Notes under the pieces: generated by a model
Database searches by the model: none
What the model saw: the letters and a program-made list of their open reading frames with translations, nothing else
Told to the model about the DNA's origin: nothing
In this document: positions 2,191 to 61,839 of the stretch, one piece after another
Layout of the letters: each line of letters opens with the position of its first letter
How positions within the stretch are numbered: the stretch's first letter is position 1
Position numbers and translations under genes: made by a program
NCBI GenBank assembly: GCA_017430725.1
Contig: JAFRMK010000006.1
Location: forward strand, 50,333-114,332
DNA length: 64,000 nucleotides
Direction: 5' to 3'
Source of the DNA: Candidatus Saccharimonadota bacterium
GTDB taxonomy: Bacteria > Patescibacteriota > Saccharimonadia > Saccharimonadales > Saccharimonadaceae

Positions 2191-2213
2191 AAAAATCGGC
2201 TTTATATTCCTTT

Positions 2214-2289: not shown

Positions 2290-2316
2290 ACATCTTCCAA
2301 GTATAGCAAAAACAGA

Positions 2317-2325
2317 TGATATAAT
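2317..2325 (+). promoter_or_regulatory. Extended -10 promoter (TGATATAAT), leaderless start of the following gene
   Basis: TGATATAAT ends 6 nt before the GTG at 2332. With a normal 6-7 nt gap from -10 to +1, the transcript would begin at the start codon. No good -35 is seen. Confidence 0.7.
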
Positions 2326-2331
2326 AAAATT

Positions 2332-2748: not shown

Positions 2749-2751
2749 TTC

Positions 2752-2780
2752 TTGACTTTACGCGAATTTTGGGGTACAAT
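2752..2780 (+). promoter_or_regulatory. Sigma70-type promoter of the initiator tRNA
   Basis: TTGACT (2752-2757), a 17-nt spacer and TACAAT (2775-2780) lie 12 nt before the tRNA 5' end. Confidence 0.8.
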
Positions 2781-2791
2781 TATAAGCACGT

Positions 2792-2868
2792 CGCGGGGTA
2801 GAGCAGTCTGGTAGCTCGTCTGGCCCATAACCAGAAGGTCGTTGGTTCAAATCCAACCCCCGCCACCA
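2792..2868 (+). tRNA. Initiator tRNA-fMet (CAU), with unusual anticodon arm
   Basis: The 77-nt gene is almost superimposable on E. coli tRNA-fMet, including GTAGCTCGTC and GAAGGTCG around the anticodon arm, and encodes CCA. Position 1 is C and position 72 is C, so the unpaired 1:72 hallmark of initiators is kept but as C:C instead of C:A. The three G-C pairs of the anticodon stem are reduced: 29-41 is T-A. Position 33, nearly always T, is C (loop CCCATAA). Confidence 0.95.
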
Positions 2869-2902
2869 TATTTAGACTACATGTTGAACATGCACAATAA
2901 TA

Positions 2903-2925
2903 ATCCCCGTAACAGGGGTATTTTT
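2903..2925 (+). terminator. Possible weak terminator after tRNA-fMet
   Basis: CCCC and GGGG pair around a 6-nt loop and are followed by TATTTTT. The 4-bp stem is short, so confidence is low. Confidence 0.35.
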
Positions 2926-2964
2926 GTTGCTTTTGTCTAATTTTTGAGTTGTTTTTAGTCCGCT

Positions 2965-3007
2965 AACCATAAACGAAATGGGTCATAAAATACCCAAGCC
3001 GTTACAA
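2965..3007 (+). repeat. Left arm of a 43-nt imperfect inverted repeat
   Basis: This stretch matches the reverse complement of 8679-8721 at 41 of 43 positions (both include ACCATAAACGAAA and ATAAAATACCCAAGCCGTTA). The arms enclose about 5.7 kb holding two surface genes and the DUF4143 ATPase. A weaker relative lies near 7092-7117. Confidence 0.85.
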
Positions 3008-3040
3008 TTTGTTTCGCTAGTGTTTAAAGCCGTTACAGGG

Positions 3041-3066
3041 CGATACAAAAACGATACAAAAACGAT
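3041..3066 (+). repeat. 11-nt direct tandem repeat in the upstream region of a surface gene
   Basis: CGATACAAAAA occurs twice in direct succession and is followed by a third CGAT. It lies about 20 nt upstream of the -35 of the next gene and could be a regulator site or simple slippage product. The 2869-3215 gap otherwise holds only the weak terminator, the inverted repeat arm and the promoter. Confidence 0.6.
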
Positions 3067-3086
3067 CCGTTAATACTTTTGAACTA

Positions 3087-3143
3087 TTGCCAAAACCATA
3101 AACATGTTGTATATTACGGACAGTGTTGGAGTAAAATAAAAAC
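3087..3143 (+). promoter_or_regulatory. Promoter and conserved leader of NPQTxD surface gene (copy 1)
   Basis: TTGCCA (3087-3092), a 17-nt spacer and TATATT (3110-3115) form a good promoter. The block from -35 through the early leader, including AGTGTTGGAGTAAAA, is repeated with high identity upstream of the minus-strand surface operon (15072 down to about 15015). Conservation includes the spacer and leader, so it marks a recent duplication or a shared regulatory site. Confidence 0.75.
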
Positions 3144-3215
3144 TTAATTAATAACGGCTGAGCCCTGGAGTGAAGCAGCGGATTGCCGTCGGCCGTTTGA
3201 GGATATCTATACCCC

Positions 3216-5336: not shown

Positions 5337-5346
5337 GGGAGAGACT

Positions 5347-7043
5347 ATGAGAACTACTAAACTGGCAAGCTACCTACTAGCCACTGCCGTCATGGCCGTC
5401 AGCCCGTTTACGGCTTTCGCCACCGAAGGCTCCGGCACGGCACCAACGGTCTCTCCTTTTACGATTACCTCGCCTCCAAAGCGGACAAGGATACCGTGAT
5501 AGATTTCAATGAAGCGCCGGCGACGGGGAATGAAGTCAACAACGATTTTGGCACGACCATACCGGTGAGTGATATCGGTGGCCTCTACATGCTTCAATCC
5601 ACTAAAGACGACGAGAAGCCAGTCTATTTCTACCGTGGGAATGTGAAAGACAACAACGTCATCCTGAACGACTTCTGCTGGCTGATGGTTCGGACGACCG
5701 AAACTGGGGGCACGAAACTCATCTATAACGGCACGCCAACTGAAGACGGGCAGTGCTTGGGCGATCCGGATTGGACAATCGAGAGCCTCGAAAGTGCATA
5801 TACCTCTTCTGGCCTTACTTCCGTGCCTAAAACAAATATCGGCATCTCAAAGTTTAATAACAAAATGAACTCCCCGGCAGATCTTTACTATATGTACGGT
5901 GAACGGTTTGAGTCCCAGAAAATAACTTTCAGCTCAGGAACGTATTTCGGCAATGACGTCGAATATGTAAACAGAGCCTATACGCTGAAGGATACGGTGA
6001 CGGTCAGTAACTATAACGAGTCTCTCGTTGCCTCAAATGGCCACCATTATTCTTGCACAACAACCAGCACTACGTGTTCGACCGTCCATTATGCAACTTA
6101 TCCGATTAACTCAAGTTATGGTTATTTTATTACGCTTTCTAATGGCGATACTTACGAGACCGCCTTGGAAAAAATGATGACCAACGAAAATGAATCAACC
6201 GCAAAACGGACAATTGAACGGTGGTTTTCTTCGAATATGGTGGATGCCATTGATTTACTGGAAGATACGACGTGGAATAGCCAAAAGGCATTCGAATCTG
6301 GTACGCTTAGATCAAAAAATGTCAATACTAAGAGCGAATATGACGAATATAATATTTCAAAGGAGATAATCGATGCCTATTATTACGGGATTGAGCGGGA
6401 TGATAGAAACGCTTTGCCCCTAATGCATGAACTCCTTCCAGAAGATGACGATAACAGCGAAGGGCAAAACTCCTCGATAGACTACAATATCGAATACCTT
6501 GGTTATAATTCTCACGTGTCGCTTGGTTGTCCTGTAAAAAAAGATTGCTATACAGTTGATTCTACGGACGGAAATGGAGCACTCTCGTATCCCGTTGGGA
6601 TGTTGACTACCTCTGAAATGCTACTGGCGGGCAATGGCTATCCTAGCATGGTTGAGGGAACGTATCTTGACGACGATTCGATATGGTGGCTACTGACTCC
6701 GTTCATGTTTGTGGGCAGTTCGGGAGGCGTAGGAGACTTTTTCGGGCCTTATGGGCAGGCAATGTGCGCCAATCCAGACAAGAGCTATGGGCTTCGCCCC
6801 GCAGTATCTTTGAATAATATGGTTGTTGCGCTTGAAGGAGACGGGAGCCCGTCATCTCCGTTTGCGAATTTGATGGTTGTTTCTGACGAAGAAGAGACGC
6901 CTAGTTCTGAAACTAAGGAGGATGAGGAAGAGGCTACGCCCATAAACCCCCAAACCTCCGACACTCTCATCAAAGCCGCCTGCATCATCCTCGCCACGAC
7001 AACTTCCGCATATATTATCGGGCGTAAACTCTCTCGCAGATAG
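5347..7043 (+). pseudogene. NPQTxD surface protein gene with a frameshift after the signal peptide
   Basis: An ATG at 5347, after the AGGGGAG at 5336-5342, opens a clear signal peptide (KLASYLLATAVMAVSPFTAFA), but that frame stops at 5494. The rest reads in another frame from about 5445 to 7043, with YDYLASKADK directly before the GTG at 5496, so the two parts join if one T is added to the TTTT run at 5457-5460. The body is rich in Tyr, Asn and Asp with DFCWLMVRTTETGG and YGLRPAVSL, and ends NPQTSD, hydrophobic segment, RKLSRR. It lacks the SpaA-like domain of its neighbours. It may be a true mutation, a slippage-controlled switch, or a homopolymer base-call error; the intact downstream frame (515 codons) suggests a recent or artefactual event. 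Confidence 0.75.
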
Positions 7044-47879: not shown

Positions 47880-47993
47880 ATGAATAAGGGTGAGATGCCG
47901 AACGGTGCAGACACGCCAAAGCCGGTTATTTTTTCATCTGGAAATACCGTCATTTCCACTTTGGGCGCCGTATTCGCCTCGGAGGCAAAGTAA
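47880..47993 (+). CDS. 37-residue leader ORF upstream of the VirB6-like gene
   Basis: ATG at 47880 opens 37 codons (NKGEMPNGADTPKPVIFSSG onward) whose stop overlaps the next ATG as TAATG. A box TGCTAAAAT ends 7 nt before the ATG, the leaderless pattern. The peptide could be a real small protein or serve mainly to couple translation to the next gene. Confidence 0.55.
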   Translation: MNKGEMPNGADTPKPVIFSSGNTVISTLGAVFASEAK

Positions 47994-50383
47994 TGAGACT
48001 CAGGCAAGCTATTCGCAAGAGCATCTTGGTCGTTGCGCTTCTTTCAGTCAGCCTGCCGGTGATATTCAGCCAAGTTGTCGCCGCCGCCCCCTCCAGCTCC
48101 GATGACAGCTCGGCGGTCTGTTATGACAACTCGGGTGCACTCGGCTGGGTAGTTTGCCCGGTCATCAATATCGGCGCACCGGCGATAAAAAAGTTGGTGG
48201 AAAACTTCATCGAGCCATTTTTGCAAATTGATGTGCGTATTTTTGGTGACCGCAGCGACAACCTTGTCAACGCCTGGTCACAGTTTCAGGCCATCGCCAA
48301 CATCGCTTTTGTCGCCATCTTCATCGTCGTCATATTCTCGCAACTCACCGGAGTTGGTATCGGCAACTACGGTATCAAAAAAATCCTTCCCAAACTTATC
48401 ATCGCCGCAATCCTCATCAACGCCTCGTATATCATCTGCCAGCTTGCCGTTGAAGTCTCAAATATCGTCGGCCTAGGCATCAAAAACGTCTTCATGGGCG
48501 TTGCGGACAACGTGAATACTGTAAGCGTCAGCAATCTCGAGAGTGGCACGACCGAGATAGCCATCGACAAAGGCCTGTCGTTTGGTCTCATTATAGCCAT
48601 CGTGGGGGCACTATCGGTCGCAGCGTTCATGAGTTCTGGCCCCATTGGCATTTTACTCACGCTAATCGTAATCGGCGCCTCTGTCTTGATGCTTTTCGTT
48701 TTGCTGTCAATCCGTCAAGCGCTTGCCGTCCTGTTGGTCGTAGTCTCGCCAATCGCATTCGCATCATACATGCTTGACGGCACCAAAAAAGCCGTCTTCG
48801 ACAAATGGTTCCAGCTGTTTAAGGCCATGCTGATTGCCTATCCGATAATTAGCCTGATAATTTATGGCGGCCAAGCCGTCGCGCGTATTCTCATCGGTGT
48901 CAACAGCGGCACTGGCGGCATGGGCTTCATTCTCGGGGCGGCCATTGCCTGTGTTGCGCCTATCTTCTTTATCCCGAGCCTAATCGTGAAATCCTTCGGC
49001 AGCCTCAGCGGCCTCGTCGAGACCGCACGCAAAAGACTCACGCCGAGTCGCGCCGGTATGGAAAAAGATATCAAAGAGGGCAGGGGGATTGGCAAGATTG
49101 GCGCCGTCAGAACCCTGAACGATACCCAGCGCGCCATTGAGAAGGCCAGGAGTGCCAGACGAGCCGAAAAACGATACGACAAAATCAAAGAAGGGGGCAC
49201 GTCGCGCATTAGGCGAGGCGCTAGCAATTGGGCCGCCAGCGGTGGCGTCAGAGGCAGAGTCGGCGGAGCAGTGCTAAAAGGCTACGACCAGCAAGCGCGA
49301 GTTTTGAAACGTGAGGCAAACGCCGCCTTCGACGACGATGTCGAGACCGAGAAAATCACCTATTTCAGCGGGCTCAGCGACAGCGCCATTGCTGACGATT
49401 TTGAAAAACTGATACCAGGCGGCCCTGACGGTGAGGCCAAATTCAACAGTGCCCATGTAATTGCCGGCCTTGACAGTATTTTCAAGGAAGAGGATTTTAT
49501 GAGAGCCTACATCGCCGCTTCTCAGAATAATGATTTCCAGGAGGCGCTAAAGGATCCAGAGTTTCGCAAAAAAGTTAACTCTATGTTGGCCAAGCGTGGT
49601 CCCACCGGTGTCGCAATCGCCAAGACGAACGAGAAGATTGCTACCGGCAGTCAGACGATCGGTGAAGGAGAGAACCAAAAAGCGGTCGAGAGCTTTAGTT
49701 TTGCCAACGCAGATTTCAGGGAAGCATACGAGAAAAATCTTGGAGGAGTCGAAAACTCATCCTTTGACAACGTATCAAAAGACACCTTTGCGCGTTATAT
49801 GATCAACGGCGAGTCTTACAGTCTTATGGATGGTGCTACGGCGACACAGATTGCCCATATCGCCGAAAGCGGACTCACCGGTGGTACTAGTAAGGAATAT
49901 ATAGAATACGTCGAGGGCTCCGCTAAGCGCGAAGAAGCGGCGCGCAACCTCACGCCAGAGGGCGTCATAAGCCTGACTCCGGCGCAAGCCTTCGCCTATG
50001 GTGGGCACGCGGACGCAGTGAAAGCTGGTGAGGCATTTGAGGCAAGCGGCGGCGACTTGAGCAAGACCGCGGAAATGCTCGCCCGTCGCGAAGGTGGTAG
50101 CCAAGACGTTGCCGCAGAATATCAAAAGCTCCAAGCCGCCGTGGTATCCTTCCAGAACAATACCACAGGCGCCAGAGAAGAAGCCTTGTCGCCGTCGACT
50201 GACCGTAGCCGTATGAACCCATTGATGAATATGTTCCTCGGACAGGCCACGCCGACGAGGAATTCTGCCGCGAATGCTGCAGGGGGTGCTGTAGGGAACG
50301 CTACTGCAAGTTCTCCCGAGCTGGTCATCGACCACAGTCAAGGTCAGCGACCAGGCCCCGAGAACTATAGTAGTTCGCGGTAA
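47993..50383 (+). CDS. VirB6/TrbL-like polytopic membrane protein
   Basis: The 796-residue product has a signal-like N-terminal segment, then several membrane helices between about residues 95 and 345, including a Cys-flanked loop and a long hydrophobic core (FVLLSIRQALAVLLVVVSPI) that resembles VirB6/TrbL membrane channels of type IV secretion. The C-terminal 400 residues are soluble, charged, Ala/Glu-rich and Gly-rich, ending in low complexity. The start overlaps the small upstream ORF by one nt. No other type IV secretion gene is adjacent, so the role may be in DNA or protein transfer, or an orphan surface channel. Confidence 0.6.
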   Translation: MRLRQAIRKSILVVALLSVSLPVIFSQVVAAAPSSSDDSSAVCYDNSGALGWVVCPVINIGAPAIKKLVENFIEPFLQIDVRIFGDRSDNLVNAWSQFQAIANIAFVAIFIVVIFSQLTGVGIGNYGIKKILPKLIIAAILINASYIICQLAVEVSNIVGLGIKNVFMGVADNVNTVSVSNLESGTTEIAIDKGLSFGLIIAIVGALSVAAFMSSGPIGILLTLIVIGASVLMLFVLLSIRQALAVLLVVVSPIAFASYMLDGTKKAVFDKWFQLFKAMLIAYPIISLIIYGGQAVARILIGVNSGTGGMGFILGAAIACVAPIFFIPSLIVKSFGSLSGLVETARKRLTPSRAGMEKDIKEGRGIGKIGAVRTLNDTQRAIEKARSARRAEKRYDKIKEGGTSRIRRGASNWAASGGVRGRVGGAVLKGYDQQARVLKREANAAFDDDVETEKITYFSGLSDSAIADDFEKLIPGGPDGEAKFNSAHVIAGLDSIFKEEDFMRAYIAASQNNDFQEALKDPEFRKKVNSMLAKRGPTGVAIAKTNEKIATGSQTIGEGENQKAVESFSFANADFREAYEKNLGGVENSSFDNVSKDTFARYMINGESYSLMDGATATQIAHIAESGLTGGTSKEYIEYVEGSAKREEAARNLTPEGVISLTPAQAFAYGGHADAVKAGEAFEASGGDLSKTAEMLARREGGSQDVAAEYQKLQAAVVSFQNNTTGAREEALSPSTDRSRMNPLMNMFLGQATPTRNSAANAAGGAVGNATASSPELVIDHSQGQRPGPENYSSSR

Positions 50384-50406: not shown

Positions 50407-51186
50407 CTAGGCCTCGCAGGCGCGTAGTAGTTTTTCGTAGAGCATTGCGACGGTCAGTGGACCAACTCCACCAATGCGCGGCGTCAGCGTCAAGTCATTA
50501 CGCTCCTCGCGCACGCCGTCGTCTAGATCGCCGTGTATTTTACCGTCCTCGCTTGCGGTGCCAGCATCGACCACTACGGCGCCTCGCTTCAGCATCGCGC
50601 TTTTAATCAGACCTGGTACGCCCGTTGCCGTCACAACGATGTCGAAGTTTTTCAACTCTGCCAAATCGTCGCCCTTATCAAAGCAGTGCACATCATAGCC
50701 AGATGCTTGCCACATCTTCAAAAGCGGTGCCCCGACCAGTCGGCCATGTCCTACAATCGCAATTTTCGCCCCGGCCAGGTCGACATTGTAGCCGTTCAGG
50801 AGCCAGTGAATCGCCATCGCGGTCGCCGTGTCGCTTTTTCCTCTCAGGCCATCAACATCCTTCTCGACGGGGATGAGGTCGAGAATTTTCTCGTCCAACT
50901 CAGTCAGCGGCAATTGCACCACGATGCCGTGCACGCTCTTGTCTGTCGCCGCCTTTTTCAGCGACTCCTCGGCATTAGCCTTGTTCAGCCGTACAATCTC
51001 GACATCAATCGCTAAATCTTCACCATAGTATTGCTTCTTTTCCATATATTTTGCAATCACCGGGCTGTCGTTGTCATAGAAGATAACCAATTTCGGTTGG
51101 ATGCCCGCATCTCGCAAGCCGCGCGAGCGTCGCGCTTGGCCCGCTTTGATAAAGCCCACCAATTGTCTGCCGTTTAATTCTTTCAT
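50407..51186 (-). CDS. folD: Methylenetetrahydrofolate dehydrogenase/cyclohydrolase
   Basis: The 259-residue product has FolD features: KLVIFYDNDSPVIAKYMEKK in the first domain, VQLPLTELD, KDVDGLRG and the NADP-binding VGHGRLVGAPLLKMW. It interconverts 5,10-methylene- and 10-formyl-tetrahydrofolate, needed for purine and thymidylate metabolism and formyl-Met. The usual YVxxK Lys context reads IAKYMEKKQYY. It overlaps murB by 4 nt (ATGA). Confidence 0.93.
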   Translation of the reverse strand: MKELNGRQLVGFIKAGQARRSRGLRDAGIQPKLVIFYDNDSPVIAKYMEKKQYYGEDLAIDVEIVRLNKANAEESLKKAATDKSVHGIVVQLPLTELDEKILDLIPVEKDVDGLRGKSDTATAMAIHWLLNGYNVDLAGAKIAIVGHGRLVGAPLLKMWQASGYDVHCFDKGDDLAELKNFDIVVTATGVPGLIKSAMLKRGAVVVDAGTASEDGKIHGDLDDGVREERNDLTLTPRIGGVGPLTVAMLYEKLLRACEA

Positions 51187-52214
51187 GCTTCCCCTATTTC
51201 CATTGGTTCTTGTTCGAGTCGATAGCCGTATTTCTCGAAAACGGCCGACACGATTGCTTCGCGCGCTTGTGCCAAGTCGCTATAGCTCTTGGCGTGGTCA
51301 TTAATCAGTACCAGGGCGGCTTTTTCCGAAACGCGCATTCCGAAATAATCCTTACCTTTTAGTCCGGCCTGTTCAATCAACCAACCGCTTGGCACTTTGC
51401 CGCCGTCCCAAACCGGGATACCCTTGGCTTCTGCGGCCTTGGCCTCCGTTTCATTCAAATAGACGTTCTTAAAGAATGAGCCGGCCGAAGCCTCAACCGC
51501 TGGGTCGGGCAACTTGCTCGCCCGAATCGCCGCCACTGCGTCACGAATCACTTGCGGCGAATAGTCAGTGATTTCTCGCTCGTCCAAATAGGCTTGCAGG
51601 GAAGTGTAGAACGGTGGCGTCAGTTGAGTTTTGCGTAATTCCACGGTCACGCTCGTAATGAAATATCGCCCCACGCCGTCACCTGTATTAAAAATGCTGT
51701 GGCGGTAGCCCAAATCCAGCTCGTCCGCCATCATGTGCTTGAAACAGTTGTCCCGGCAATCATAGACGCAGACCGAGTGCAGTACTTGCTTGGCCTCTTG
51801 TCCATAGGCACCCACGTTCTGCACTGGCATCGCGCCAACCGTACCCGGCACTTTCGAAAGTGCTTCGATGCCGGAATAGCCAAATCCTTCGCCGTTCCAC
51901 AGCTTCACGCTATATTCGACCAGGTCGTCCAGCAACTCGCCGCTTTTTGCGCACAGCCGAATCGACGTTTGGTCGCTGTCAATCACATAAATACCACGCA
52001 AGCGATTTACGAGTATCACACCGTCAAAGCCGCCGTCGCGACCAATCACGTTGCTTCCACTCCCCAAGATGTAAGTCGGCAAATTCTTGTCTTGTGCGAA
52101 ATGATAGGCCTCCGCCAAGTCCTTGTCTTCCTCAATCTCAATTACGTATCGCGCCGGCCCGCCGAGCCGCATCGTCGTCAGCTCCGCAATCGGCACATTT
52201 TCTCGTATGTTCAT
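51183..52214 (-). CDS. murB: UDP-N-acetylenolpyruvoylglucosamine reductase
   Basis: The 343-residue product shows MurB features: TTMRLGGPARYVIEI, ILGSGSNVIGRDGGFDGVIL for FAD binding, SKVPGTVGAMPVQNVGAYGQE, RHSIFN, and SAGSFFKNV with the proton-donor Ser. It reduces UDP-GlcNAc-enolpyruvate to UDP-MurNAc. The ATG is preceded by TGATATAAT ending 6 nt upstream, predicting a leaderless transcript. It is first in an operon with folD. Confidence 0.94.
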   Translation of the reverse strand: MNIRENVPIAELTTMRLGGPARYVIEIEEDKDLAEAYHFAQDKNLPTYILGSGSNVIGRDGGFDGVILVNRLRGIYVIDSDQTSIRLCAKSGELLDDLVEYSVKLWNGEGFGYSGIEALSKVPGTVGAMPVQNVGAYGQEAKQVLHSVCVYDCRDNCFKHMMADELDLGYRHSIFNTGDGVGRYFITSVTVELRKTQLTPPFYTSLQAYLDEREITDYSPQVIRDAVAAIRASKLPDPAVEASAGSFFKNVYLNETEAKAAEAKGIPVWDGGKVPSGWLIEQAGLKGKDYFGMRVSEKAALVLINDHAKSYSDLAQAREAIVSAVFEKYGYRLEQEPMEIGEA

Positions 52215-52220
52215 ATTTAA

Positions 52221-52229
52221 ATTATATCA
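52221..52229 (-). promoter_or_regulatory. Extended -10 promoter of murB (leaderless)
   Basis: On the minus strand TGATATAAT, then TTAAAT, then ATG. The -10 to start gap is 6 nt. Confidence 0.75.
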
Positions 52230-52248
52230 AGAAACTTAAGAAAACACT

Positions 52249-53322
52249 TTATTCGAAGTCGCTGCGCCGAATTACATAACGCCAAGCATTCTTCTCGCCA
52301 ATGATGAAGAAATAACTTGCATTTGCGTCACAATAGAGGTTGATTGGCGCATGCGTTGAATTATAGACATCGAGTAGTTCGTCGAAATCGGACACATCCG
52401 ACACGCTTTCGCTCATGATATTTGGCGCACTTCGCATCTCGACAATCACGCCACCATAGTCATCCAGTATTTTGCGGACGTGAGTTTCATATGGGTATTT
52501 CGCTGCATGATGCATTCGCACGACTAGCCAAACCAAAAGGATTATTGCAGTCAAGAAGAGCAACGCAATACCCGAAAGCACACTGATTCGATGCACTAAA
52601 TCAGTCCCAACGGTTTCCTCTTTCAGTACGATGTCATCCTTTTTGATTTCCTTAATTTTGCCTTCAACTGAGGAGTTTTCATCAATCGCTATGGTGAAAT
52701 CGAGCCGCGAGCTAAATTGCGTAGCCTCGCTAAAACCCGCCGGCTTCACATCTCCTTCTATAATCATCGCAACATTCAACTTGCCTTTTGCGGTCACGCC
52801 CTCTGCCGCTGAGCTGAAACGCTTAATCTTCTCGAGATATTTTGCGTAGTCTATTTTTACATCTTGGTTCAACGCCAGACTGTTGCCAGAAATTGACGCA
52901 CTCTGCTCTGGCAGTAATTCGACTTCTTCTTCCCAAAGATGCGCGTCGACGTTCCCCTCGACTTTGTCCGCGCTCGTCAATGCGACTAATTTATAGTGCA
53001 ATACGCCACTCACGGGTACTGAAAAAGCCGCACTGTATTTATATTGCAAATCAAGATAATCTATTAGGCTAGTCGGATATGAACGATCCGAAGAGCCAGT
53101 TATATAGCCGTTTTCGTACACATCGTTCGGCAATAAATGCACGTCATACTCGATATTCGAGCCGCCTTCGTTGTATGACACGACATTCTTCGTTTTATCG
53201 ACCAGACCAAAAGTTAAGAGAATCACGCCAACTATTGCGATGAAAGCGGCAAGCGCCAAACTGCGACCAAGCAAATTTGTCGTAATCTCCTGCTTCTGTT
53301 CCTGCGCTTCTTGCATGCCCAC
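52249..53322 (-). CDS. DUF5305-like membrane protein of the SipW/TasA operon
   Basis: The 357-residue product has an N-terminal membrane helix (about 22-42), a large extracytoplasmic beta-rich domain (YSAAFSVPVSGVLHYKLV), a second helix (about 245-268) and a cytoplasmic C-terminus of about 85 residues. The layout and the SG-x-x-xYKL pattern match DUF5305 proteins, which co-occur with SipW-type peptidases. It starts 1 nt after the peptidase stop and closes the operon. Likely helps process or assemble the secreted TasA-like proteins. Confidence 0.7.
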   Translation of the reverse strand: MGMQEAQEQKQEITTNLLGRSLALAAFIAIVGVILLTFGLVDKTKNVVSYNEGGSNIEYDVHLLPNDVYENGYITGSSDRSYPTSLIDYLDLQYKYSAAFSVPVSGVLHYKLVALTSADKVEGNVDAHLWEEEVELLPEQSASISGNSLALNQDVKIDYAKYLEKIKRFSSAAEGVTAKGKLNVAMIIEGDVKPAGFSEATQFSSRLDFTIAIDENSSVEGKIKEIKKDDIVLKEETVGTDLVHRISVLSGIALLFLTAIILLVWLVVRMHHAAKYPYETHVRKILDDYGGVIVEMRSAPNIMSESVSDVSDFDELLDVYNSTHAPINLYCDANASYFFIIGEKNAWRYVIRRSDFE

Positions 53323-53323
53323 C

Positions 53324-54481
53324 CTATCCTTTATTAAATATTTCGTTTATCCATACGGTCGGAAAACCGATGTATTTGCTGACCGAAACGACTTTTCCGA
53401 CCACGTCTTCATCCGTCGCCTGAAAGCCGTCCGCGCTATCGTTGTTGTCGCCTTTTGTCGTAAAAGAGAATGCGTCTCCGTGCTCCTCGATTTCGACTAC
53501 TCGGTGCGTGATAATTACACGATCTTTTTTAAAAACCAAGATGTCATCTTTCCTGACGTCCTCGGCATCTAGTTTTTTCACGAGCACCGCATCGCCTCTC
53601 CCATAGACCGGCAACATCGAATCTGACGCTACCGCAATTAGCTGATATGGGAAAAAACCTGACACCAGCGCTGTTAAAATTATACCACAGACCGTAAGCG
53701 GAATGGTGATTATTTTGAAATTTATTCGCTTCAATCGAACCCCCGCTTCCTCCTCCGAGAACCGATCTGTCCTTAGTGTGGCGAGATAGATTATGAAAGG
53801 TAACAGTACGTGCAGAAACGAATAGAGATAATTGCCGAAAGCCGGCACGATTGGAATCATGTACGGATAAAGCATGATGCCGAGCTTAAAAACTAAGGCG
53901 GATTTTGTTCCGTGTCGGAAACAGAGGAAAGCGCAGAGCGTCTCTCGCGCAATCGTCGAAAAAACAACCATACAGAGGAAGAGAAATACCAGTTCTGGAT
54001 TATCAAAATTCACGCTTGGTAATTCGAGCAAAAGATAAAGCAAAATCGTCATCAGCGTGAACAGCCCGAGAATGTATCTGTGCTCGATATACTGTCGTGA
54101 AACGATGGCCCTCAGGTTTTCAACCAGTAGCGCCAACAGCAAAACCGGCAAAAAACCAGATAGAATGTTGCTCAGCTCCAACGAGAAGGCGCTGTGGTTA
54201 AAGCCAATAATCAAGCCCGAAGCATATGAAAGTATGCCATAAGCGAGCATAATCGCCACAACGGTTGCCGTCGTTGAACTGCGCAAGCGGTTTCGGTTTT
54301 TATACTTGCCTAATCGTTCCCTCGCCAAGACGATAACGCCAGCTAATCCTAAGACTAGCAAGTATTTCAGCAGCGTCAAATCTAACCATTTTTCCAAAAC
54401 GAAGCCCACAAAAACCAGCCCAGCCAATGCCAAACACATCTCTAAAACCGTTCGCTCTGTTTTCTGAAATCTTCTGCCCAC
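53324..54481 (-). CDS. sipW: SipW-type signal peptidase I with extended membrane domain
   Basis: The 385-residue product starts with about eight predicted membrane helices, longer than usual, then a peptidase S26 domain with SDSMLPVYGRGDAVLV (catalytic Ser), VIITHRVVEI (His where the bacterial type has Lys, as in SipW and ER peptidases) and TKGDNNDSADG. SipW-type enzymes cleave TasA-like precursors. The three such genes just upstream in the operon fit as substrates. Whether the extra membrane part acts as a channel or platform is unknown. Confidence 0.87.
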   Translation of the reverse strand: MGRRFQKTERTVLEMCLALAGLVFVGFVLEKWLDLTLLKYLLVLGLAGVIVLARERLGKYKNRNRLRSSTTATVVAIMLAYGILSYASGLIIGFNHSAFSLELSNILSGFLPVLLLALLVENLRAIVSRQYIEHRYILGLFTLMTILLYLLLELPSVNFDNPELVFLFLCMVVFSTIARETLCAFLCFRHGTKSALVFKLGIMLYPYMIPIVPAFGNYLYSFLHVLLPFIIYLATLRTDRFSEEEAGVRLKRINFKIITIPLTVCGIILTALVSGFFPYQLIAVASDSMLPVYGRGDAVLVKKLDAEDVRKDDILVFKKDRVIITHRVVEIEEHGDAFSFTTKGDNNDSADGFQATDEDVVGKVVSVSKYIGFPTVWINEIFNKG

Positions 54482-54493
54482 CTTTTGTCCTCT

Positions 54494-55060
54494 TTATGAA
54501 TATCCTAATGTTAACTTCGGATACAAGGTTTTTGAACCTGAGCCAGACTTATATCGTACGGTCACAAGGTAGCCGTCGTAGCCGTATCCATACAACCAAC
54601 AACCAGAGCCAGTTGCCCCAGAGCTCGTAAACACGACATCGTCTGCTTCGTCGTACAGGGTCACCGAAAAATCATAATATGTCGAACTAACGTTATTCAT
54701 TGTAAGAGTCGATAGCTGATAGTCCGTCGAGTCGATATTGGCGACTTCGATATAAAACGAACAGGTCTTGCCTACGCTTGGTAGGACGCATTTAAAATAT
54801 AGCTCCGTTCCCGTGTATGACATGTTCGAAATCGTGCCGCCGTTGCTTTCGTCGTCAAAGCTGCTGCTGTCAAAATACAGTGGTTTTGGTGCGGTGGTCG
54901 TAGTCGTCCCCGTCACCGAAAGCGTTTTCGTATAAGCCGCAAAGCCCACGGCCATAAAAAGTACTGCAAACACAAAAGCAGGCAAAATGAAAGCTTTTAC
55001 TGGACTGTCCTTTTTATTCTTTTTTAGCTTTCCCAATTTCGTTCCTCTATACTTGGTCAA
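54494..55060 (-). CDS. TasA/camelysin-like secreted protein (third)
   Basis: The 188-residue product has a Lys-rich start, hydrophobic signal helix (FILPAFVFAVLFMAVGFAAY) and the cleavage-region motif GFAAYTKTLSVTG shared with its two neighbours, then a beta-rich mature part with CVLPSVGKTCSFYI (paired Cys). It overlaps the preceding gene by 14 nt. Family: TasA/CalY type, whose members form surface fibres in Firmicutes. Sequence similarity is low, so this rests on motif, length and the adjacent SipW-type peptidase. Confidence 0.75.
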   Translation of the reverse strand: MTKYRGTKLGKLKKNKKDSPVKAFILPAFVFAVLFMAVGFAAYTKTLSVTGTTTTTAPKPLYFDSSSFDDESNGGTISNMSYTGTELYFKCVLPSVGKTCSFYIEVANIDSTDYQLSTLTMNNVSSTYYDFSVTLYDEADDVVFTSSGATGSGCWLYGYGYDGYLVTVRYKSGSGSKTLYPKLTLGYS

Positions 55061-55697
55061 ATTTAAAACTTATAGTTATGCTTATGTTTTGATTCGTAGT
55101 CGGCATATTGTTTACGTTTTCGGCTTGGATGAAGGCTGCATCAATTTCGAACCATAATCTGCCGGCCGTGGAGCCGCTCATTTTTGATACTCGCAAATTG
55201 CTGCTGCTTACATTGGTCGTTCCGTAATTGATTTTTGTGCCGTATGTTCCGTCGGTCGACCACGAAAGGTTAGAGGAGCCATTATAGGAAAACATCCGCA
55301 CAGCAATATATTGTTGTTGAGCTGTCGTCGGGCCGCTAATCGTGAAACTTGTCAATTTCGCATCAAACGTTCCCTCATTGATTGCATCAAGGTCGAATCC
55401 GCAGACGTCTCCCAGCGAAAGCGTACACTGAAAGGTCATACTCGAATCGCTGATAGAATGCGCCGTCGTATCGACATACCCCTCTTCATAGAAAGAATCG
55501 GGGTCCCACCTTACGCTCCAGACAGCTTTCTCGACAGATGCAGTCCCAGAAATGTTCAGCGTCTTCGTAAACGCTGCAAACCCGACCGCCATACCCAGTG
55601 TCGCGACAACAAGACCGAGCAGAGCAACCCATTGCGCCCCGAGGCGCTTCTGGATGCTTCGCCGTTTTCGTTTGTTGCTACTCGCTGACTTTTTCAT
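55047..55697 (-). CDS. TasA/camelysin-like secreted protein (second)
   Basis: The 216-residue product has an Arg/Lys-rich start, signal helix (VALLGLVVATLGMAVGFAAF) and the motif GFAAFTKTLNISGTASV, then a beta-rich mature part with CTLSLGDVCGFDL (paired Cys) and INEGTFDAKLTSFTISG, a segment nearly identical to the first gene's. This marks a recent duplication between the first and second genes. The start is 21 nt after the stop of the first gene. Confidence 0.78.
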   Translation of the reverse strand: MKKSASSNKRKRRSIQKRLGAQWVALLGLVVATLGMAVGFAAFTKTLNISGTASVEKAVWSVRWDPDSFYEEGYVDTTAHSISDSSMTFQCTLSLGDVCGFDLDAINEGTFDAKLTSFTISGPTTAQQQYIAVRMFSYNGSSNLSWSTDGTYGTKINYGTTNVSSSNLRVSKMSGSTAGRLWFEIDAAFIQAENVNNMPTTNQNISITISFKFDQV

Positions 55698-55717
55698 GGC
55701 GTTTTGCCGTTTTTATT

Positions 55718-56311
55718 TTATTGTTGCGTAAAGTCAAGCACGGCTTTCGGGCTGACCGTGACGGCCGATGACGGCAAATCGCTTGCGCTCGATGGCTGGA
55801 TATAATCAACACGCACTTTCACGGTGTGGCGCCCTGGCGTCGTGCCGGATTTCTTCGCAAGCGTGGTCGCATTTGAGACCGTTGTCGTTGCAGTATACGG
55901 CGTTGTAGCGCCATTGTAGTACAGCTTGTAGGTCAGGTATTTCGCTTGTGCCGTGGAGATGCCGCTCAGCGTCACCTTCGTCAATTTCGCATCAAACGTA
56001 CCTTCATTGACTACATCTATCGTGAATTCGCAGAACTGCCCAGGTGCAGTCAATGAGCAAGAAAATGCCAGCGTAGTGCCCGTATAACTTGTTTTTGTTA
56101 CGGTTTGGCTGCCGCTTGACGTAACTGGATCTTTAGTTGAATCAAAATGCACATTCCACGAAGCCAAGTCCACATTCGCCGTACCATTAATATTCAAGGT
56201 CTGCGTATAAGCCGCAAAACCAATCGCCATGAAGACAATCGCCAGCGCCAAAGCCCCAATCGTTGCACCTTGCAGGCGTTTTTGCTTTTTTAAATCCTTC
56301 TGTTTTTTCAT
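55718..56311 (-). CDS. TasA/camelysin-like secreted protein (first)
   Basis: The 197-residue product has a Lys-rich start, signal helix (ALALAIVFMAIGFAAY), the motif GFAAYTQTLNINGTANV, then CSLTAPGQFCEFTI with paired Cys and VVNEGTFDAKLTKVTLSG. It is the promoter-proximal gene of the five-gene minus-strand operon. Mature protein of about 160 residues; likely forms or coats surface fibres, an inference from family and operon only. Confidence 0.8.
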   Translation of the reverse strand: MKKQKDLKKQKRLQGATIGALALAIVFMAIGFAAYTQTLNINGTANVDLASWNVHFDSTKDPVTSSGSQTVTKTSYTGTTLAFSCSLTAPGQFCEFTIDVVNEGTFDAKLTKVTLSGISTAQAKYLTYKLYYNGATTPYTATTTVSNATTLAKKSGTTPGRHTVKVRVDYIQPSSASDLPSSAVTVSPKAVLDFTQQ

Positions 56312-56419
56312 GAATATTCCTTAAATATAACGCTCAAGTTTACTATAACCCCCCCCAAGGTATTTTGCAAGAGACGAATGTAGACGTGATAGAATACAAA
56401 CACGACATCTTGTCGGTTT

Positions 56420-56496
<77 letters not shown>

Positions 56497-56513
56497 TTGA
56501 AACGAACACAGCC

Positions 56514-57566
56514 ATGATGAAATACTTTTGGAAAAAGAAGACTATCCTGTCGTTTTTTGCCGCCGTTCTGATTGTCGCCATCCATAATTCGACCACTAGC
56601 CAGTTTAATTTTCCAGACAGCGCTATCAGTGAGGCGACTAAGGCCTTGCATAATTTCCTGGCCTACGCGCTTGGCGGTATTGCGGTGCCTTTTTTCTTTT
56701 TCATGTCCGGCGCCGCGCTGTTTCGTAACTACAACCCCGATAAATTTCGCGACAAAATGCGGTCACGACTCGGGAAACTAGTTGTGCCGTTTCTGGTTTG
56801 GAACACCATTGGTCTGCTTGTCGCCCTTGCTTATACCTACACACCGCTACGGCAATTCGTATCTGGCCGAGAATTTTTCGAGCCATCGGTTAAAAACCTA
56901 TTCGAGGGCATTTTCTTGTATAAATATAACTTCCACTTCTGGTTTATGTTCGACCTCATCATCTACACCTTGCTTACTCCCGTCATCTACGGCCTCATCA
57001 AGCGAAAAACAAGCGGAATGCTCTTTTTGGTCGGCTTATTCGTTCTTCCTCTGCTCGTCAAGACATCTCCCGTCATCAAGCTCGAATTCACCGTCTTCTA
57101 CGGGCTGGGCTGCTATATTGGAAAGCACCATCTGCGGCGCATCGCCACAAGAAGCCCCCGTCGGGCATCGATTATCTGCGGTCTCATGTCGCTGGTTCTT
57201 CTAGCTATCAGGATGCTGGCCGTCAGCGGCTTTATCCATCTCACCGTCATCGGCTCGCAGCTCTCTCTTTTGGCACTACTTTCATGCATCTATTTCGCGG
57301 TGGACCTTTGGCTTCCCAAAGCAGCCGACCGACGTTGCTACGACCAATTTTTCCCAATCTATGTCTTGCACCCCTATGTCGTCGCCTTGTTCGTAAAAAT
57401 ATTCAAGACGATTGGCCCAAACTCACCAGCTATCATGCTCGCATCAGAACTCCTCGCGACTCTATTTGCCGTGATCGTTATCACTAAATTGGCCGACATT
57501 TGGCAAAGGCGACTCCCCAAGTTCTATGCATTCGCTTTCGGGGGCGCTTTGCGGTCAAAATCTTAA
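56514..57566 (+). CDS. Acyltransferase 3 family membrane protein
   Basis: The 350-residue product has about ten membrane helices with the family's early His (VAIHNSTT) and VPFFFFMSGAALF followed by KLVVPFLVWN, and FHFWFMFDLIIY. Members transfer acyl groups to cell-surface sugars or peptidoglycan. The start at 56514 or the ATG 3 nt later are both possible. It sits just after tRNA-Arg and may be transcribed from the same promoter. Confidence 0.87.
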   Translation: MMKYFWKKKTILSFFAAVLIVAIHNSTTSQFNFPDSAISEATKALHNFLAYALGGIAVPFFFFMSGAALFRNYNPDKFRDKMRSRLGKLVVPFLVWNTIGLLVALAYTYTPLRQFVSGREFFEPSVKNLFEGIFLYKYNFHFWFMFDLIIYTLLTPVIYGLIKRKTSGMLFLVGLFVLPLLVKTSPVIKLEFTVFYGLGCYIGKHHLRRIATRSPRRASIICGLMSLVLLAIRMLAVSGFIHLTVIGSQLSLLALLSCIYFAVDLWLPKAADRRCYDQFFPIYVLHPYVVALFVKIFKTIGPNSPAIMLASELLATLFAVIVITKLADIWQRRLPKFYAFAFGGALRSKS

Positions 57567-58523: not shown

Positions 58524-60008
58524 ATGCGAGAATATTTAGCCAAACGCAAGCGCATATTCTCAATTTTGGCGCCGACCGTGTTCGGCATTTTATATATGCT
58601 GATTTGCATGACTTGTCTGCGCCGCTCAGTTTGGACGGGGGAGTCCTATTCCGCCTATCTCACACATTTCGGTTTTCGCGAAATATTCGATTTTAGCGCA
58701 GCTGGCACTCAGCCGCCACTGTATTATGTTTTTCTCAAAATCTGGGCGCATATTTTTGGCCGTTCAGATTTTGACCTGCGCTTCATGTCGGTCTTCTTCG
58801 GCGCCATCGCCATCATGTTCGCCTATATGTGGATGAAATACAAGTACGGCGCCAAATCCGCAACGCTCGGCGCGTTGCTGCTCAGCCTGTCGCCCCTTTT
58901 AATTCGCTGCGGTCAAGAAATGCAGCCATTCACGATGGCGACCGCAATCGTGCTCGCTTCGACCTACTTCCTCCAGCTTGCGCTCGACAACGAGAAGCAA
59001 AAGTGGTGGATAACTTATGCGGTTCTTGCGGCCGCTGGGCTCTGGACGAGCTATTACACCGCTTTTGCATTCCTCGCACAGCTCATCTATCTTTGCTTCG
59101 TCTATGGCAAAAGGGTTTTACAAAAGCGAGTCTTTCTGACGTTTGGCTTGGCGTGCTTGCTGTTCGCCGCATGGCTCCCCAAGCTCATCGCCCAATTGCC
59201 GCAATTTGGTGCCAATCCGGTCAGCCTGCACCGCTTGGCCGATTTCTGTGGGCAGGCCTTCTTGCTTCGCGACGCCGATAGCATCACCGGCGGCCTACTA
59301 CTCCTACTCATCACTGGTCTCAGCCTTGTCGCCTTGTTCGCGGCGAAATATCGCCACGGTCTGCGTTTCCTGCTTTGTGGCACGCTTGCGCCAGTCCTCG
59401 CCCTGATCATTTTCTCGGTTACGCCATTCGCACTTGAGCTAGCGCCTGAAAAAATCCTGTTTTCCGTAGTCTGCGCCACTATGTTGGGCGGCGTATCCAT
59501 CGTGATTCTCGCAAACAATCTGCGGCTGCACTCTACGCATCGACAACGCGCCAATTGGGCATTTGCTGGCAGCGCCGTCATTCTGCTATTATTGTCCGCC
59601 AGCGGCATCGGCGCCAGTTTCGAGCCGGCCGATTATGATTTTGACAAACTTCATCAGAACCTCGCCACCGTCAACGCCGTTGAGCAATTGCCAATTGTCA
59701 CGGACGACCCCTGGCTATACTACAACCTGAGTTTTTATGACACTTCGCAGGTCTTCTTCCTGGCCGAAGACGCAAGTTACGACTCTGGCTTGCTGCGACC
59801 GCTCGAAAAAAGCTACTTTGGCAAAATCTCCAAGCTTGACGCCTATCTTGAGAAGCATCACTTGAGCGATTTCTGGCTGGTAAAGGAGGCCCCAGCGCAC
59901 GGCGATATCGCTTCGCCGATTCCGGGCTTCGCGTCCGCCCAAGTGCTCACTTTGCAATTCCGCGACCATGGCCAATCATTTGAGGCCGTCCACTTCGCCA
60001 AGGAGTGA
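58524..60008 (+). CDS. Glycosyltransferase 39-like (PMT/ArnT type) membrane protein
   Basis: The 494-residue product has about ten membrane helices, an acidic first loop (WTGESYSAYLTHFGF, Glu-containing) and the FSAAGTQPPLYYVFLKIWAH segment typical of PMT_2/ArnT-type enzymes, where a PPLYY motif is followed by helices. They transfer a sugar from a polyprenyl phosphate to protein or lipid on the outer face of the membrane. The substrate is unknown. Start fixed by the box 6 nt upstream. Confidence 0.82.
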   Translation: MREYLAKRKRIFSILAPTVFGILYMLICMTCLRRSVWTGESYSAYLTHFGFREIFDFSAAGTQPPLYYVFLKIWAHIFGRSDFDLRFMSVFFGAIAIMFAYMWMKYKYGAKSATLGALLLSLSPLLIRCGQEMQPFTMATAIVLASTYFLQLALDNEKQKWWITYAVLAAAGLWTSYYTAFAFLAQLIYLCFVYGKRVLQKRVFLTFGLACLLFAAWLPKLIAQLPQFGANPVSLHRLADFCGQAFLLRDADSITGGLLLLLITGLSLVALFAAKYRHGLRFLLCGTLAPVLALIIFSVTPFALELAPEKILFSVVCATMLGGVSIVILANNLRLHSTHRQRANWAFAGSAVILLLLSASGIGASFEPADYDFDKLHQNLATVNAVEQLPIVTDDPWLYYNLSFYDTSQVFFLAEDASYDSGLLRPLEKSYFGKISKLDAYLEKHHLSDFWLVKEAPAHGDIASPIPGFASAQVLTLQFRDHGQSFEAVHFAKE

Positions 60009-60014
60009 AAAAGA

Positions 60015-60023
60015 TGATATAAT
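60015..60023 (+). promoter_or_regulatory. Extended -10 of tRNA-Pro
   Basis: TGATATAAT; the tRNA starts 10 nt after it. Confidence 0.7.
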
Positions 60024-60033
60024 ACAGGGCAGT

Positions 60034-60109
60034 CGGGGCGTGGCGCAGTTGGTAGCGCGCAGCGTTCGGGACGCTGAGGTCGCCCGTTCAAGTCGGGTCG
60101 CCCCGACCA
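60034..60109 (+). tRNA. tRNA-Pro (CGG)
   Basis: Acceptor CGGGGCG/CGCCCCG, encoded CCA, anticodon loop TTCGGGA gives CGG. A truncated surface gene begins about 135 nt downstream. Confidence 0.95.
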
Positions 60110-60139
60110 TCTCAATAAGTTTCACGACAATTCGACAGG

Positions 60140-60218
60140 CCTTCCAACCATGGGATTTTCCCTGGTTTTTTCGTGGTTCTTCAATGAACCTTCCAACTAC
60201 GGGATTTTCCTGGTTTTT
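60140..60218 (+). repeat. About 30-nt direct repeat after tRNA-Pro
   Basis: CCTTCCAACCATGGGATTTT (60140) and CCTTCCAACTACGGGATTTT (60189) begin two imperfect copies of about 30 nt, 49 nt apart, both running into CTGGTTTTT. They lie between the tRNA 3' end and the truncated surface gene. Confidence 0.75.
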
Positions 60219-60243
60219 GCAGTGTCGCCACCCCAAACGCAAG

Positions 60244-61839
60244 CTAGCGCTTGCTCACTCTTCTGCGCTATTTACGATTAATGGCAGAGCCCTTCCGTCT
60301 GACGCTTATAACGTTGAGCTTTATGATATACCCAAGGAAGAAGCCGAACAGGCGGGCTTTGACTTTTGTAACGAGTTCGTCATATCGCTTGACTGGGTTA
60401 ACGAAAGCGATACGCCGCTATATGCCGAAGGTTCAACTATAGAGTTCACTTATGAGGCAACTATTGAAGATGACGCGCCAAGCGAAGTATTTGGCCGAGG
60501 TGTGTATATTTACGGATCAAAGTCTGGCCACCAAGAGGTCTCCAGTACGGACTTTATGACGAATACTACTTACCAGGCGACCGCATTACTTGATGGAAAT
60601 ATCGTCATTCGTCGGGTTGACGCAAATTCTCTGCCAGTGGCGGGCGCCAAATACAGGATTAACGGAGTTGCCGCCACGGCAAATGGAGACGGCACATATA
60701 CATTCGATAAAAACGGTGACATCAGCGAATTTGTCACTGATGATACTGGTAAGGTCGTAATCCTTGGCGTGCCTCTTGGAGAATACACGGCAACAGAGGT
60801 CTCGTCACCCGACGGCAGTTCTCCTGCTCCGAGCAGCCTCACGATAGATTTGAAGACCGAGTCGAAGTCAATCCTTCTGGGCACCAGAACGGTGTTCTCT
60901 GATCCAGGTATTCTATCGCAACTAGGCCTGAGCCTCTCTCCGTCAAATATTGTCGAGGTTGCCGAGAATGAGTGGATTGCGCTATTCCCGGGCGAGGCGG
61001 TTCTTACGTATAATTACGACAGCTCTACGGGAAATTATACAACCACGAACGACAACGCTGAGCTTGATGCCATACGAAAAGACGGTGATAATCTTTACGC
61101 CATCGAAGAACACTCTACCGTCGACTATGATAGACAGTTTAAGCGTCTTCCGAATAATGATTACTATTTAACGGTTTCAGAATCAGATATTGGCTACCGT
61201 TGGGTATATATAATCAAGAGCGACGACGAGACGATTACGCTTATGAACGGCAGCAAATCGGCGATACTTGGGCTGGGCGATGATGGCTGCTTCCACGGAG
61301 ATATTGCTACCATTTTCTCAAGCAGTAGCAATGATAGTCTTGAAGAACCAGTAGTTTGCTCAAACAGCGAAGGTGGATATGAGCTAATCATGCCCACAGA
61401 AAATCGCGGAGAATATTATACTTTCGGATACCATTTCTCTCCCCGTGAAGCCGACACGGAGGAGGCGGAGGAGCTCGGCATAAGTGGCAACGAGCAGCTT
61501 TTCATCAACGATAACGAATTCATGGCATACTACGCTTCGATTGTCGACGACAATCAGATTACTCTTATATATGGATTCCCGATACATTATGATTCGGTCC
61601 TAAATCGTTATTTCATTGGAATTGCGGCACCGTCTCCGGCTGAAATTGAAATAACCCAAGAAACCATCGAAGACAAAGTAGTTGCTGCTGAATTCCTATT
61701 CAGGCCTTCTACGGGCGCCGATTCCCCTGAATCCATCCCCAACCCCCAAACCGCCGACCTTCTCCCACTCGCCATCCTTTCCGTAACCGTCCTCGCTTCT
61801 GTCAGCTACGTCGCCACCAAGCGAAAAACCAAGAGATAG
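60244..61839 (+). pseudogene. 5'-truncated NPQTxD surface gene
   Basis: The frame opens upstream inside tRNA-Pro with no start, and homology begins near 60262 (ALFTINGRALPSDAYNVEL), matching residues about 150 onward of paralogs. The signal peptide and the WGxxGxG region are missing. The rest is intact: SpaA/Cna-B-like domain (NIVIRRVDANSLPVAGAKY to TEVSSPDG), the YD-type units (YNYDSSTGNY, IHYDSVLNRY), CFHG...CSNSEGGYE, and NPQTAD with hydrophobic segment and RKTKR. Without a signal peptide it is presumably silent. Confidence 0.8.

What the first reader, a model, noticed from the sequence alone, without database searches (positions are those of the whole stretch)
52249..56311. SipW-type peptidase with three TasA/camelysin-like proteins in Saccharibacteria
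The operon holds three secreted proteins with the common motif GFAA[Y/F]T.TL.I.GTA, a signal peptidase with His in place of Lys and an extra multi-helix domain, and a DUF5305-like protein. In Bacillus this combination makes TasA fibres. A fibre system could serve attachment to the host cell in this episymbiotic group. The paired Cys in each mature protein is an addition to the Bacillus layout.
Basis: partly seen in the sequence, partly recalled or inferred. Interest (0 to 1): 0.75.

Follow-up and report, generated by a model that had tools for sequence, protein, structure and literature searches.

The report
TasA-like fibre operon in Saccharibacteria
A small genome that is likely a Saccharibacterium carries a tight five-gene cluster (three related proteins with a shared signal-peptide-like motif, a peptidase of the Ser-His signal-peptidase family and a DUF5305 protein) that is predicted to build a TasA-like surface fibre, which would likely be a second kind of filament beside its probable type IV pili.

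Summary
In detail: all five minus-strand genes are there, packed end to end. The system is not confined to Saccharibacteria. The same cluster (TasA-like, SipW-type peptidase with about eight extra membrane segments, DUF5305) occurs in named Bacillota MAGs, and the SipW tree puts the window's copy in a clade shared by Saccharibacteria and Bacillota, apart from other copies of its family; all saccharibacterial copies as one clade are rejected (p-AU 4.65e-16). The genome holds seven TasA-like genes and a second operon whose extra large protein joins a TasA-like N-terminus, a fibronectin-III-like domain and a probable Hint (hedgehog/intein-type) module. The window's operon is a diverged relative with three subunits and without that protein. 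The paired Cys occurs in 7 of 7 TasA-like proteins of this genome and in few relatives. Predicted P2 and P2' are aromatic in all seven, as in B. subtilis TasA, a poor LepB substrate that SipW cuts. Camelysin (Pfam M73) membership was tested and not met, so I file it as a TasA-like variant, not as a member.

The parts
55718..56311 (-). TasA-like subunit 1, 197 aa; predicted cleavage GFA|AY at residue 33/34; Cys85 and Cys94
56207..56221 (-). GFAAY motif of subunit 1: predicted SipW cleavage site with aromatic P2 (F) and P2' (Y), then the likely donor strand
   Evidence: sequence; P2' aromatic in 7 of 7 own, 19 of 19 other Saccharibacteria rows, 22 of 42 rows of the other named loci, 66 of 80 protein-search rows; P2 aromatic in 7 of 7, 19 of 19, 42 of 42, 79 of 80; meaning of the site from PMC10269814
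55047..55697 (-). TasA-like subunit 2, 216 aa, Cys91 and Cys99
   Evidence: match to the A2 profile E 3.9e-52
54494..55060 (-). TasA-like subunit 3, 188 aa (TTG start), most divergent: 25-33% identity to the other six; lacks W52 and the NEGTFDA core motif; Cys91, 100, 154
   Evidence: A2 profile E 3.7e-24; identities and alignment
53324..54481 (-). SipW-type (ER/archaeal) signal peptidase, 385 aa: about eight predicted membrane segments, one more next to the catalytic domain, Ser288 and His326
   Evidence: (SEC11A E 3.6e-24)
53618..53620 (-). codon of predicted catalytic Ser288
   Evidence: invariant in 18 of 18 rows; sequence
53504..53506 (-). codon of predicted general-base His326
   Evidence: invariant in 18 of 18 rows; sequence
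52249..53322 (-). DUF5305 protein, 357 aa: two predicted membrane segments (about 15-45 and 241-274), strand-rich domain between them predicted outside, conserved C-terminal domain predicted inside
   Evidence: PF17231 over cut-off; 16 of 17 rows of its alignment match PF17231 at E up to 10; AlphaFold2 mean pLDDT 82.4; hydropathy
56342..56370 (-). promoter-like site upstream of the first gene (weak; 7 such sites in the region against 6.1 in shuffles)
56420..56496 (+). tRNA-Arg(ccg), divergent; upstream border of the cluster

Best explanation
The cluster encodes three related small proteins, a peptidase of the Ser-His (ER-type) signal-peptidase family and a DUF5305 protein, and it likely makes a TasA-type surface fibre in which each subunit would insert its freshly cut N-terminal strand into the next subunit. 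Steps: (1) the three preproteins would be exported by Sec (inferred). (2) The SipW-type enzyme is predicted to cut them at GFA|A[Y/F]; P2 and P2' are aromatic, and in B. subtilis TasA a Trp at P2 and a Phe at P2' hinder LepB (PMC10269814; by analogy here, no cleavage-site program was run). (3) The exposed N-terminus A[Y/F]T.TL would become the donor strand that fills the groove of the next beta-sandwich (inferred from the model and from TasA). (4) A hairpin disulfide (Cys85-Cys94) would stiffen each subunit, made by one of two thioredoxin-fold (DsbA-type by recall) proteins of the genome (inferred). (5) DUF5305, with two predicted membrane segments, would hold SipW or the growing fibre at the membrane (inferred). 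(6) Subunit 3, which lacks conserved core residues, would be a minor start or cap subunit in place of the large protein that the sister operon has (inferred). What the fibre binds is untested; contact with other cells is the likeliest use.
Confidence: 0.68

Rival explanations
1. The three proteins are exported, SipW-cut single beta-sandwich modules that sit one by one on the cell surface (binding or matrix proteins) and do not polymerise.
For: No sequence match to TasA; fold matches are middling and include many non-filament beta-sandwiches such as CBMs; copies without SipW or DUF5305 in the held stretch exist: 14 of 55 named loci and three genes in this genome.
Against: Seven related subunits with a conserved mature N-terminus; a TasA-profile module at the N-terminus of the large operon protein; conserved neighbouring peptidase.
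Confidence: 0.2
2. The window's operon is a decaying relative of the operon on contig C6 and makes little or nothing.
For: It lacks the large protein and sits on a longer branch (0.78 against 0.30 for C6) in the SipW tree; subunit 3 has lost core residues.
Against: All five frames are open, the predicted catalytic Ser and His are kept, the Cys pair is kept in all three subunits.
Confidence: 0.07
3. The proteins are camelysin-type metalloproteases, as the family name of the nearest Pfam model says.
For: Two of 35 alignment rows show a weak M73 match.
Against: No HExxH in 7 of 7 own proteins; no M73 match for the three.
Confidence: 0.02

Closest known systems
TasA fibre system of Bacillus subtilis (tapA-sipW-tasA)
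   Same: Small subunits beside an ER-type signal peptidase; aromatic P2 and P2' at the (here predicted) cleavage site; predicted beta-sandwich with a free N-terminal strand; in the sister operon a larger protein has a TasA-like N-terminus, as TapA shares its first residues with TasA (PMC10151520, passages)
   Different: No camelysin sequence match; peptidase carries about eight extra membrane segments; DUF5305 present; no TapA-like gene recognised among the five; Cys pair in each subunit; three subunits
B. cereus TasA/CalY/CapP filaments
   Same: Several subunits that could co-assemble, one SipW (PMC13082335, outline, abstract and passages)
   Different: DUF5305 present here; no search for CapP was made
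Clostridium perfringens sipW-bsaABCRSD
   Same: SipW plus several secreted proteins; BsaA makes very stable filaments (PMC7395162, passages)
   Different: The five genes hold no two-component pair like bsaR/bsaS; subunits not compared by sequence
Archaeal bundling pili (Pyrobaculum; structure 7ueg)
   Different: Poor rmsd (9.5); the paper itself (PMC9245690) was not held
Type IV pili of Saccharibacteria (TM7x; PMC12206443, passages)
   Same: Surface filament of an episymbiont; two PF00437 ATPases over cut-off in this genome
   Different: Other signal-peptide class, subunits and assembly machinery

Membership tests
TasA/camelysin (Pfam PF12389, Peptidase_M73) | Profile match over the curated cut-off | tested here: not met
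   Own genome 0 matches; none for proteins 1-3 at E up to 10; 2 of 35 alignment rows, best E 0.0068; 1 of 10 divergent relatives, 14.6 bits against 22.5
TasA/camelysin (Pfam PF12389, Peptidase_M73) | Beta-sandwich (jelly-roll) subunit like solved TasA | tested here: inconclusive
TasA/camelysin (Pfam PF12389, Peptidase_M73) | Polymerisation by N-terminal donor strand | not testable with these tools
   Only single-chain models; residues 36-53 without regular structure fit but do not show it
TasA/camelysin (Pfam PF12389, Peptidase_M73) | Encoded beside a SipW-type peptidase | tested here: met
Signal peptidase I, ER/archaeal type (TIGR02228) | Profile over cut-off and Ser-His pair | tested here: met
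   86.1 bits, cut-off 51.85; Ser288 and His326 invariant in 18 rows; SEC11A match E 3.6e-24
SipW equivalog of Bacilli (NF046067) | Profile over cut-off | tested here: not met
   66.6 bits, cut-off 190
DUF5305 (PF17231) | Profile over cut-off | tested here: met
   44.3 bits, cut-off 29
Sortase-assembled pilins | C-terminal LPXTG-like sorting signal | tested here: not met
   No LPxT[GAS] or NPxT[GAN] in 7 of 7 own TasA-like proteins

The most novel reading that the evidence does not exclude
Gut Saccharibacteria and gut Bacillota share, by gene exchange across phyla, a donor-strand fibre system of a new layout: disulfide-stapled TasA-like subunits, a two-part membrane unit (SipW with eight extra helices plus DUF5305) that cuts and launches them, and a TapA-like starter protein that ends in a hedgehog-type Hint module and so could be bonded covalently to a surface. 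The ultrasmall symbiont would use such fibres to hold or mimic its partner cells, which would point to Bacillota as partners.
Probability: 0.22. Interest if true: 0.85.

Novelty: new variant of a known kind. Interest (0 to 1): 0.6.

Why it matters
Saccharibacteria live on other bacteria. The one paper on their filaments that I read passages of (PMC12206443) describes type IV pili in TM7x; its thicker (about 3.2 nm) filament could not be tied to genes by deletion. A TasA-like system would be a second, simpler filament class that likely needs no assembly ATPase. The clade shared with Bacillota is a lead to which bacteria these cells live with. The probable Hint protein raises the question whether a filament can be fixed to a surface by thioester chemistry. 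The main points can be tested with one purified subunit and a few genes taken from MAGs.

Tried and rejected

A named family for the peptidase's N-terminal domain: Pfam gave only scattered weak matches (DUF4870 E 0.0014 in 1 of 18). A sequence bridge to camelysin through divergent relatives: one of ten showed M73, 14.6 bits against 22.5. NCBIfam: no family over cut-off shown for protein 1, and none matched by more than 1 of 35 alignment rows. Operon GC (0.465) lies within the range of equal windows (0.409-0.546), so base composition gives no sign of recent transfer. Promoter scan: 7 sites against 6.1 in shuffles; terminator scan: 11 against 5.0 (sd 2.0), some of them inside genes, not followed up. 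A single-sequence scan of genome contigs with SipW found no relative. Direction of transfer: not resolved, the tree has no outgroup. The 21 Saccharibacteria rows of the mixed clade as one clade are not rejected (p-AU 0.291), so one transfer is enough there. Misbinned contigs in MAGs were not tested for.

Rows dropped: in the SipW tree, rows under 340 or over 420 aa were left out (the upper limit for the named loci only) and identical rows merged. In the motif and Cys counts only TasA-profile proteins of 130-260 aa at E < 1e-20 from the named loci were used, identical rows were merged, so L097 is counted under P0003, and P0001 was left out because the window's own protein stands for it. The 'other named loci' group is 34 loci: 31 of Bacillota groups (29 by title, 2 Aphodocola), 2 Pelethosoma, which NCBI puts in Mycoplasmatota, and 1 'uncultured bacterium' (L139, which is in the tree). 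Several unnamed and named loci are evidently the same contigs (equal contig lengths), so the two surveys overlap.

Recalled, from no call: that the solved chains 6tmm/6y75 are Hint domains; that Hint domains of hedgehog proteins keep the first thioester step without the last Asn step; that Thioredoxin_4 proteins are DsbA-like; the rule that positive residues lie inside. Wang et al. 2022 on archaeal bundling pili was not held and is known only through papers that cite it. Papers: PMC9674648, PMC10151520, PMC7395162, PMC10269814, PMC12206443 passages only; PMC13082335 outline, abstract and passages; all others in search listings only. That TasA-like fibres in Saccharibacteria are not in print rests in this library alone; it holds no preprints and few subscription journals, and searches listed 25 of 219 and 12 of 190 papers. 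The 12 papers hold both words but are by title microbiome surveys and the like; I opened none. Searches (DUF5305; Hint domain with TasA) found no paper.
Full report
1. What is in the window. On the minus strand, 56311 down to 52249, five genes run head to tail: 197, 216 and 188 aa proteins, a 385 aa peptidase and a 357 aa DUF5305 protein, with gaps of 20, -14, 12 and 1 bases. Upstream lies a divergent tRNA-Arg (56420-56496), downstream a murB-like gene on the same strand (51183-52214; named from its sequence, not tested). A common transcript is likely from the packing but is not shown; terminator-like patterns lie inside protein 3 and SipW. That the genome is a Saccharibacterium is inferred from its nearest named relatives.

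2. The peptidase. TIGR02228 (archaeal/ER type) is met with 86.1 bits against 51.85, the Bacilli SipW equivalog is not (66.6 against 190). Ser288 and His326 are invariant in 18 rows, and the profile finds human SEC11A and SEC11C (E 3.6e-24, 3.7e-24). About eight hydrophobic segments precede the one next to the catalytic part. Full-length matches, extension included, are in 30 of 199 sampled genomes of the same family (my count of rows that span the profile from position 39 or lower to 375 or higher, one of them with a stop inside; 40 of 199 have any match at 1e-20) and in the Bacillota loci. Pfam gave no family for the extension. With PF10502 the genome shows three signal peptidases: one conventional on C5, over cut-off, and the two SipW-types, below it.

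4. The cleavage site. All seven TasA-like proteins of this genome read GFA-A-[Y/F]. If the cut is after GFA, as in TasA (no cleavage-site program was run), P2 is Phe and P2' is aromatic. PMC10269814 (passages) reports that Phe at P2' and Trp at P2 hinder LepB on B. subtilis TasA, that SipW cuts it, and that none of 143 verified LepB-cleaved proteins has an aromatic P2'. P2' is aromatic in 19 of 19 other saccharibacterial rows, 22 of 42 rows of the other named loci (20 have Leu) and 66 of 80 rows of the protein search; P2 in 19 of 19, 42 of 42 and 79 of 80. [quoted passage not shown] One residue would thus serve both cutting and assembly (inferred).

5. The Cys pair. Two Cys lie on the two arms of a predicted hairpin (strands 80-87 and 93-102 in protein 1; Cys85, Cys94). 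They occur in 7 of 7 own proteins, in 5 of 80 protein-search rows (P0002; P0003, identical to L097 of a roe-deer Saccharibacterium; P0006, 200 of 208 residues as in the C6 gene; P0008; P0063, 228 of 229 as in the C2 gene), 0 of 19 other saccharibacterial rows and 0 of 42 rows of the other named loci. The genome encodes two Thioredoxin_4 proteins over cut-off. The S-S distance was not measured.

6. DUF5305. Two membrane segments, a strand-rich domain between them, and a conserved C-terminal domain (FDELLDVYNS.H.PIN in most rows) predicted inside. PF17231 is in 24 of 244 genomes of the class sample (20 over cut-off), 3 of 286 of the phylum sample (2 over cut-off: this genome and one of its family), and none of 14 control genomes, B. 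subtilis among them (the control's name is read). In most clusters it follows SipW; in L091, L092 and L096 it stands on the other side of TasA. This suggests a partner of the peptidase or of the growing fibre (inferred).

7. The rest of the genome. Four more TasA-like genes lie outside the window: one on C6, two divergent ones on C5, one on C2. On C6 there is a second operon: TasA-like 1380-2006, SipW 2022-3173, DUF5305 3175-4272, then an 808 aa protein 4226-6652 of locus L056. Fifteen such large proteins aligned (A6) share a TasA-like N-terminus with G.A.Y, a fibronectin-III-like domain (fn3 in 9 of 15 at E up to 0.1; titin chain E 7.5e-7) and a probable Hint module (Hom_end_hint in 9 of 15, best E 0.0012; Hint in 5 of 15, best E 3.4e-4; where bits were shown they are below cut-off; at E 0.001 one of them, of L097, showed no family). 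The profile also finds 6tmm (E 2.6e-5; a Hint domain by recall) and a chain named 'Intein C-terminal splicing domain-containing protein' (8w20, E 0.025). Of 16 large proteins, 15 have the module's first Cys; B_L127 lacks it. The usual final His-Asn reads Thr-Asp, so the last splicing step would be lost while the thioester step could remain (inferred from recalled chemistry). Like TapA, which shares its first residues with TasA (PMC10151520), this protein could start the fibre (inferred). The window's operon lacks it.

8. Distribution and history. TasA-profile matches: 23 of 244 genomes of the class sample. A scan of named genomes with a 7-row alignment gave 55 loci, 21 of Saccharibacteria and 34 of others, 31 of these of Bacillota groups. 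A ruminant gut site is named in 7 of the 21 and 4 of the 34 titles; most of the rest name no site, so 'gut' is an inference for them. SipW and DUF5305 are in the same locus in 17 of 21 and 20 of 34; SipW alone in 4 (two of them at contig ends); neither in 14. In a 65-row SipW tree the window's copy groups with L097 and the C6 copy (99/95), inside an 18-row saccharibacterial clade (99/99), inside a 33-row clade with 12 Bacillota rows (100/99). Holding all 43 saccharibacterial rows together against the other 22 is rejected (p-AU 4.65e-16); holding the 21 of the mixed clade together is not (p-AU 0.291). The family was thus likely exchanged between phyla at least once, direction unknown; old duplications with losses, or misbinned contigs, are not excluded. 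Long branches (L061, L149, L141, L115) are unsure.

9. Verdict. It works most likely like a TasA fibre system, by donor strands after SipW cutting, confidence 0.68 for the mechanism. It is not filed as a camelysin family member, since the defining profile was tested and not met. It is a new variant: other subunits by sequence, an enlarged peptidase, DUF5305, and in the sister operon a probable Hint protein. The use in host attachment is open. In the searched library I found no paper on TasA-like fibres in this group (listings only, save passages of PMC12206443).

Noticed in passing
L056:4226-6652 (contig C6 of the same genome) and 14 relatives in alignment A6: Large protein of the sister operon: TasA-like N-terminus, fibronectin-III-like domain, probable Hint (hedgehog/intein-type) module with conserved first Cys and no terminal Asn; also in Bacillota operons.
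   Followed up: partly
L057:6373-7903 and L058:5631-6320: Three TasA-like genes of the same genome without SipW or DUF5305 beside them; all keep the GFAAY motif and the hairpin Cys pair.
   Followed up: partly
window 59968-61839 and L056:9268-11262: Two proteins with a SpaA (Cna-B-like) domain over cut-off and a C-terminal NPQT...KR sorting-type end, each a few kb from a TasA-like operon; three sortases over cut-off in the genome. The window ORF start overlaps tRNA-Pro, so the true start is likely later.
   Followed up: partly
window 56514-57566 and L057:8003-9835: Acyltransferase-3 family genes (PF01757 over cut-off) lie beside TasA-like genes at two places in the genome; could modify a surface polymer.
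   Followed up: no
L062:6029-6829, L079:2664-3464 and similar loci: In another group of the family the cluster has a 266-275 aa protein between TasA-like genes and SipW-DUF5305; the two that were scanned match CBM_2 over cut-off.
   Followed up: partly
L149:3725-9818: An Erysipelotrichaceae MAG with eight TasA-profile genes in a row followed by a SipW-type peptidase; no DUF5305 in the 10.7 kb held.
   Followed up: no
L126, L127 and P0067, P0075: TasA-profile N-termini on longer proteins (321-742 aa; LRR_5 listed for P0067 and P0075), so the module may also serve as the base of larger surface proteins.
   Followed up: no
window 52000-56600: Terminator-like patterns are about twice as many as in shuffles (11 against 5.0, sd 2.0), several inside genes.
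   Followed up: no
window 47993-50383: 796 aa protein with many membrane segments in its N-terminal half, resembling VirB6/TrbL-like proteins by eye; no Pfam match at E 0.001.
   Followed up: no
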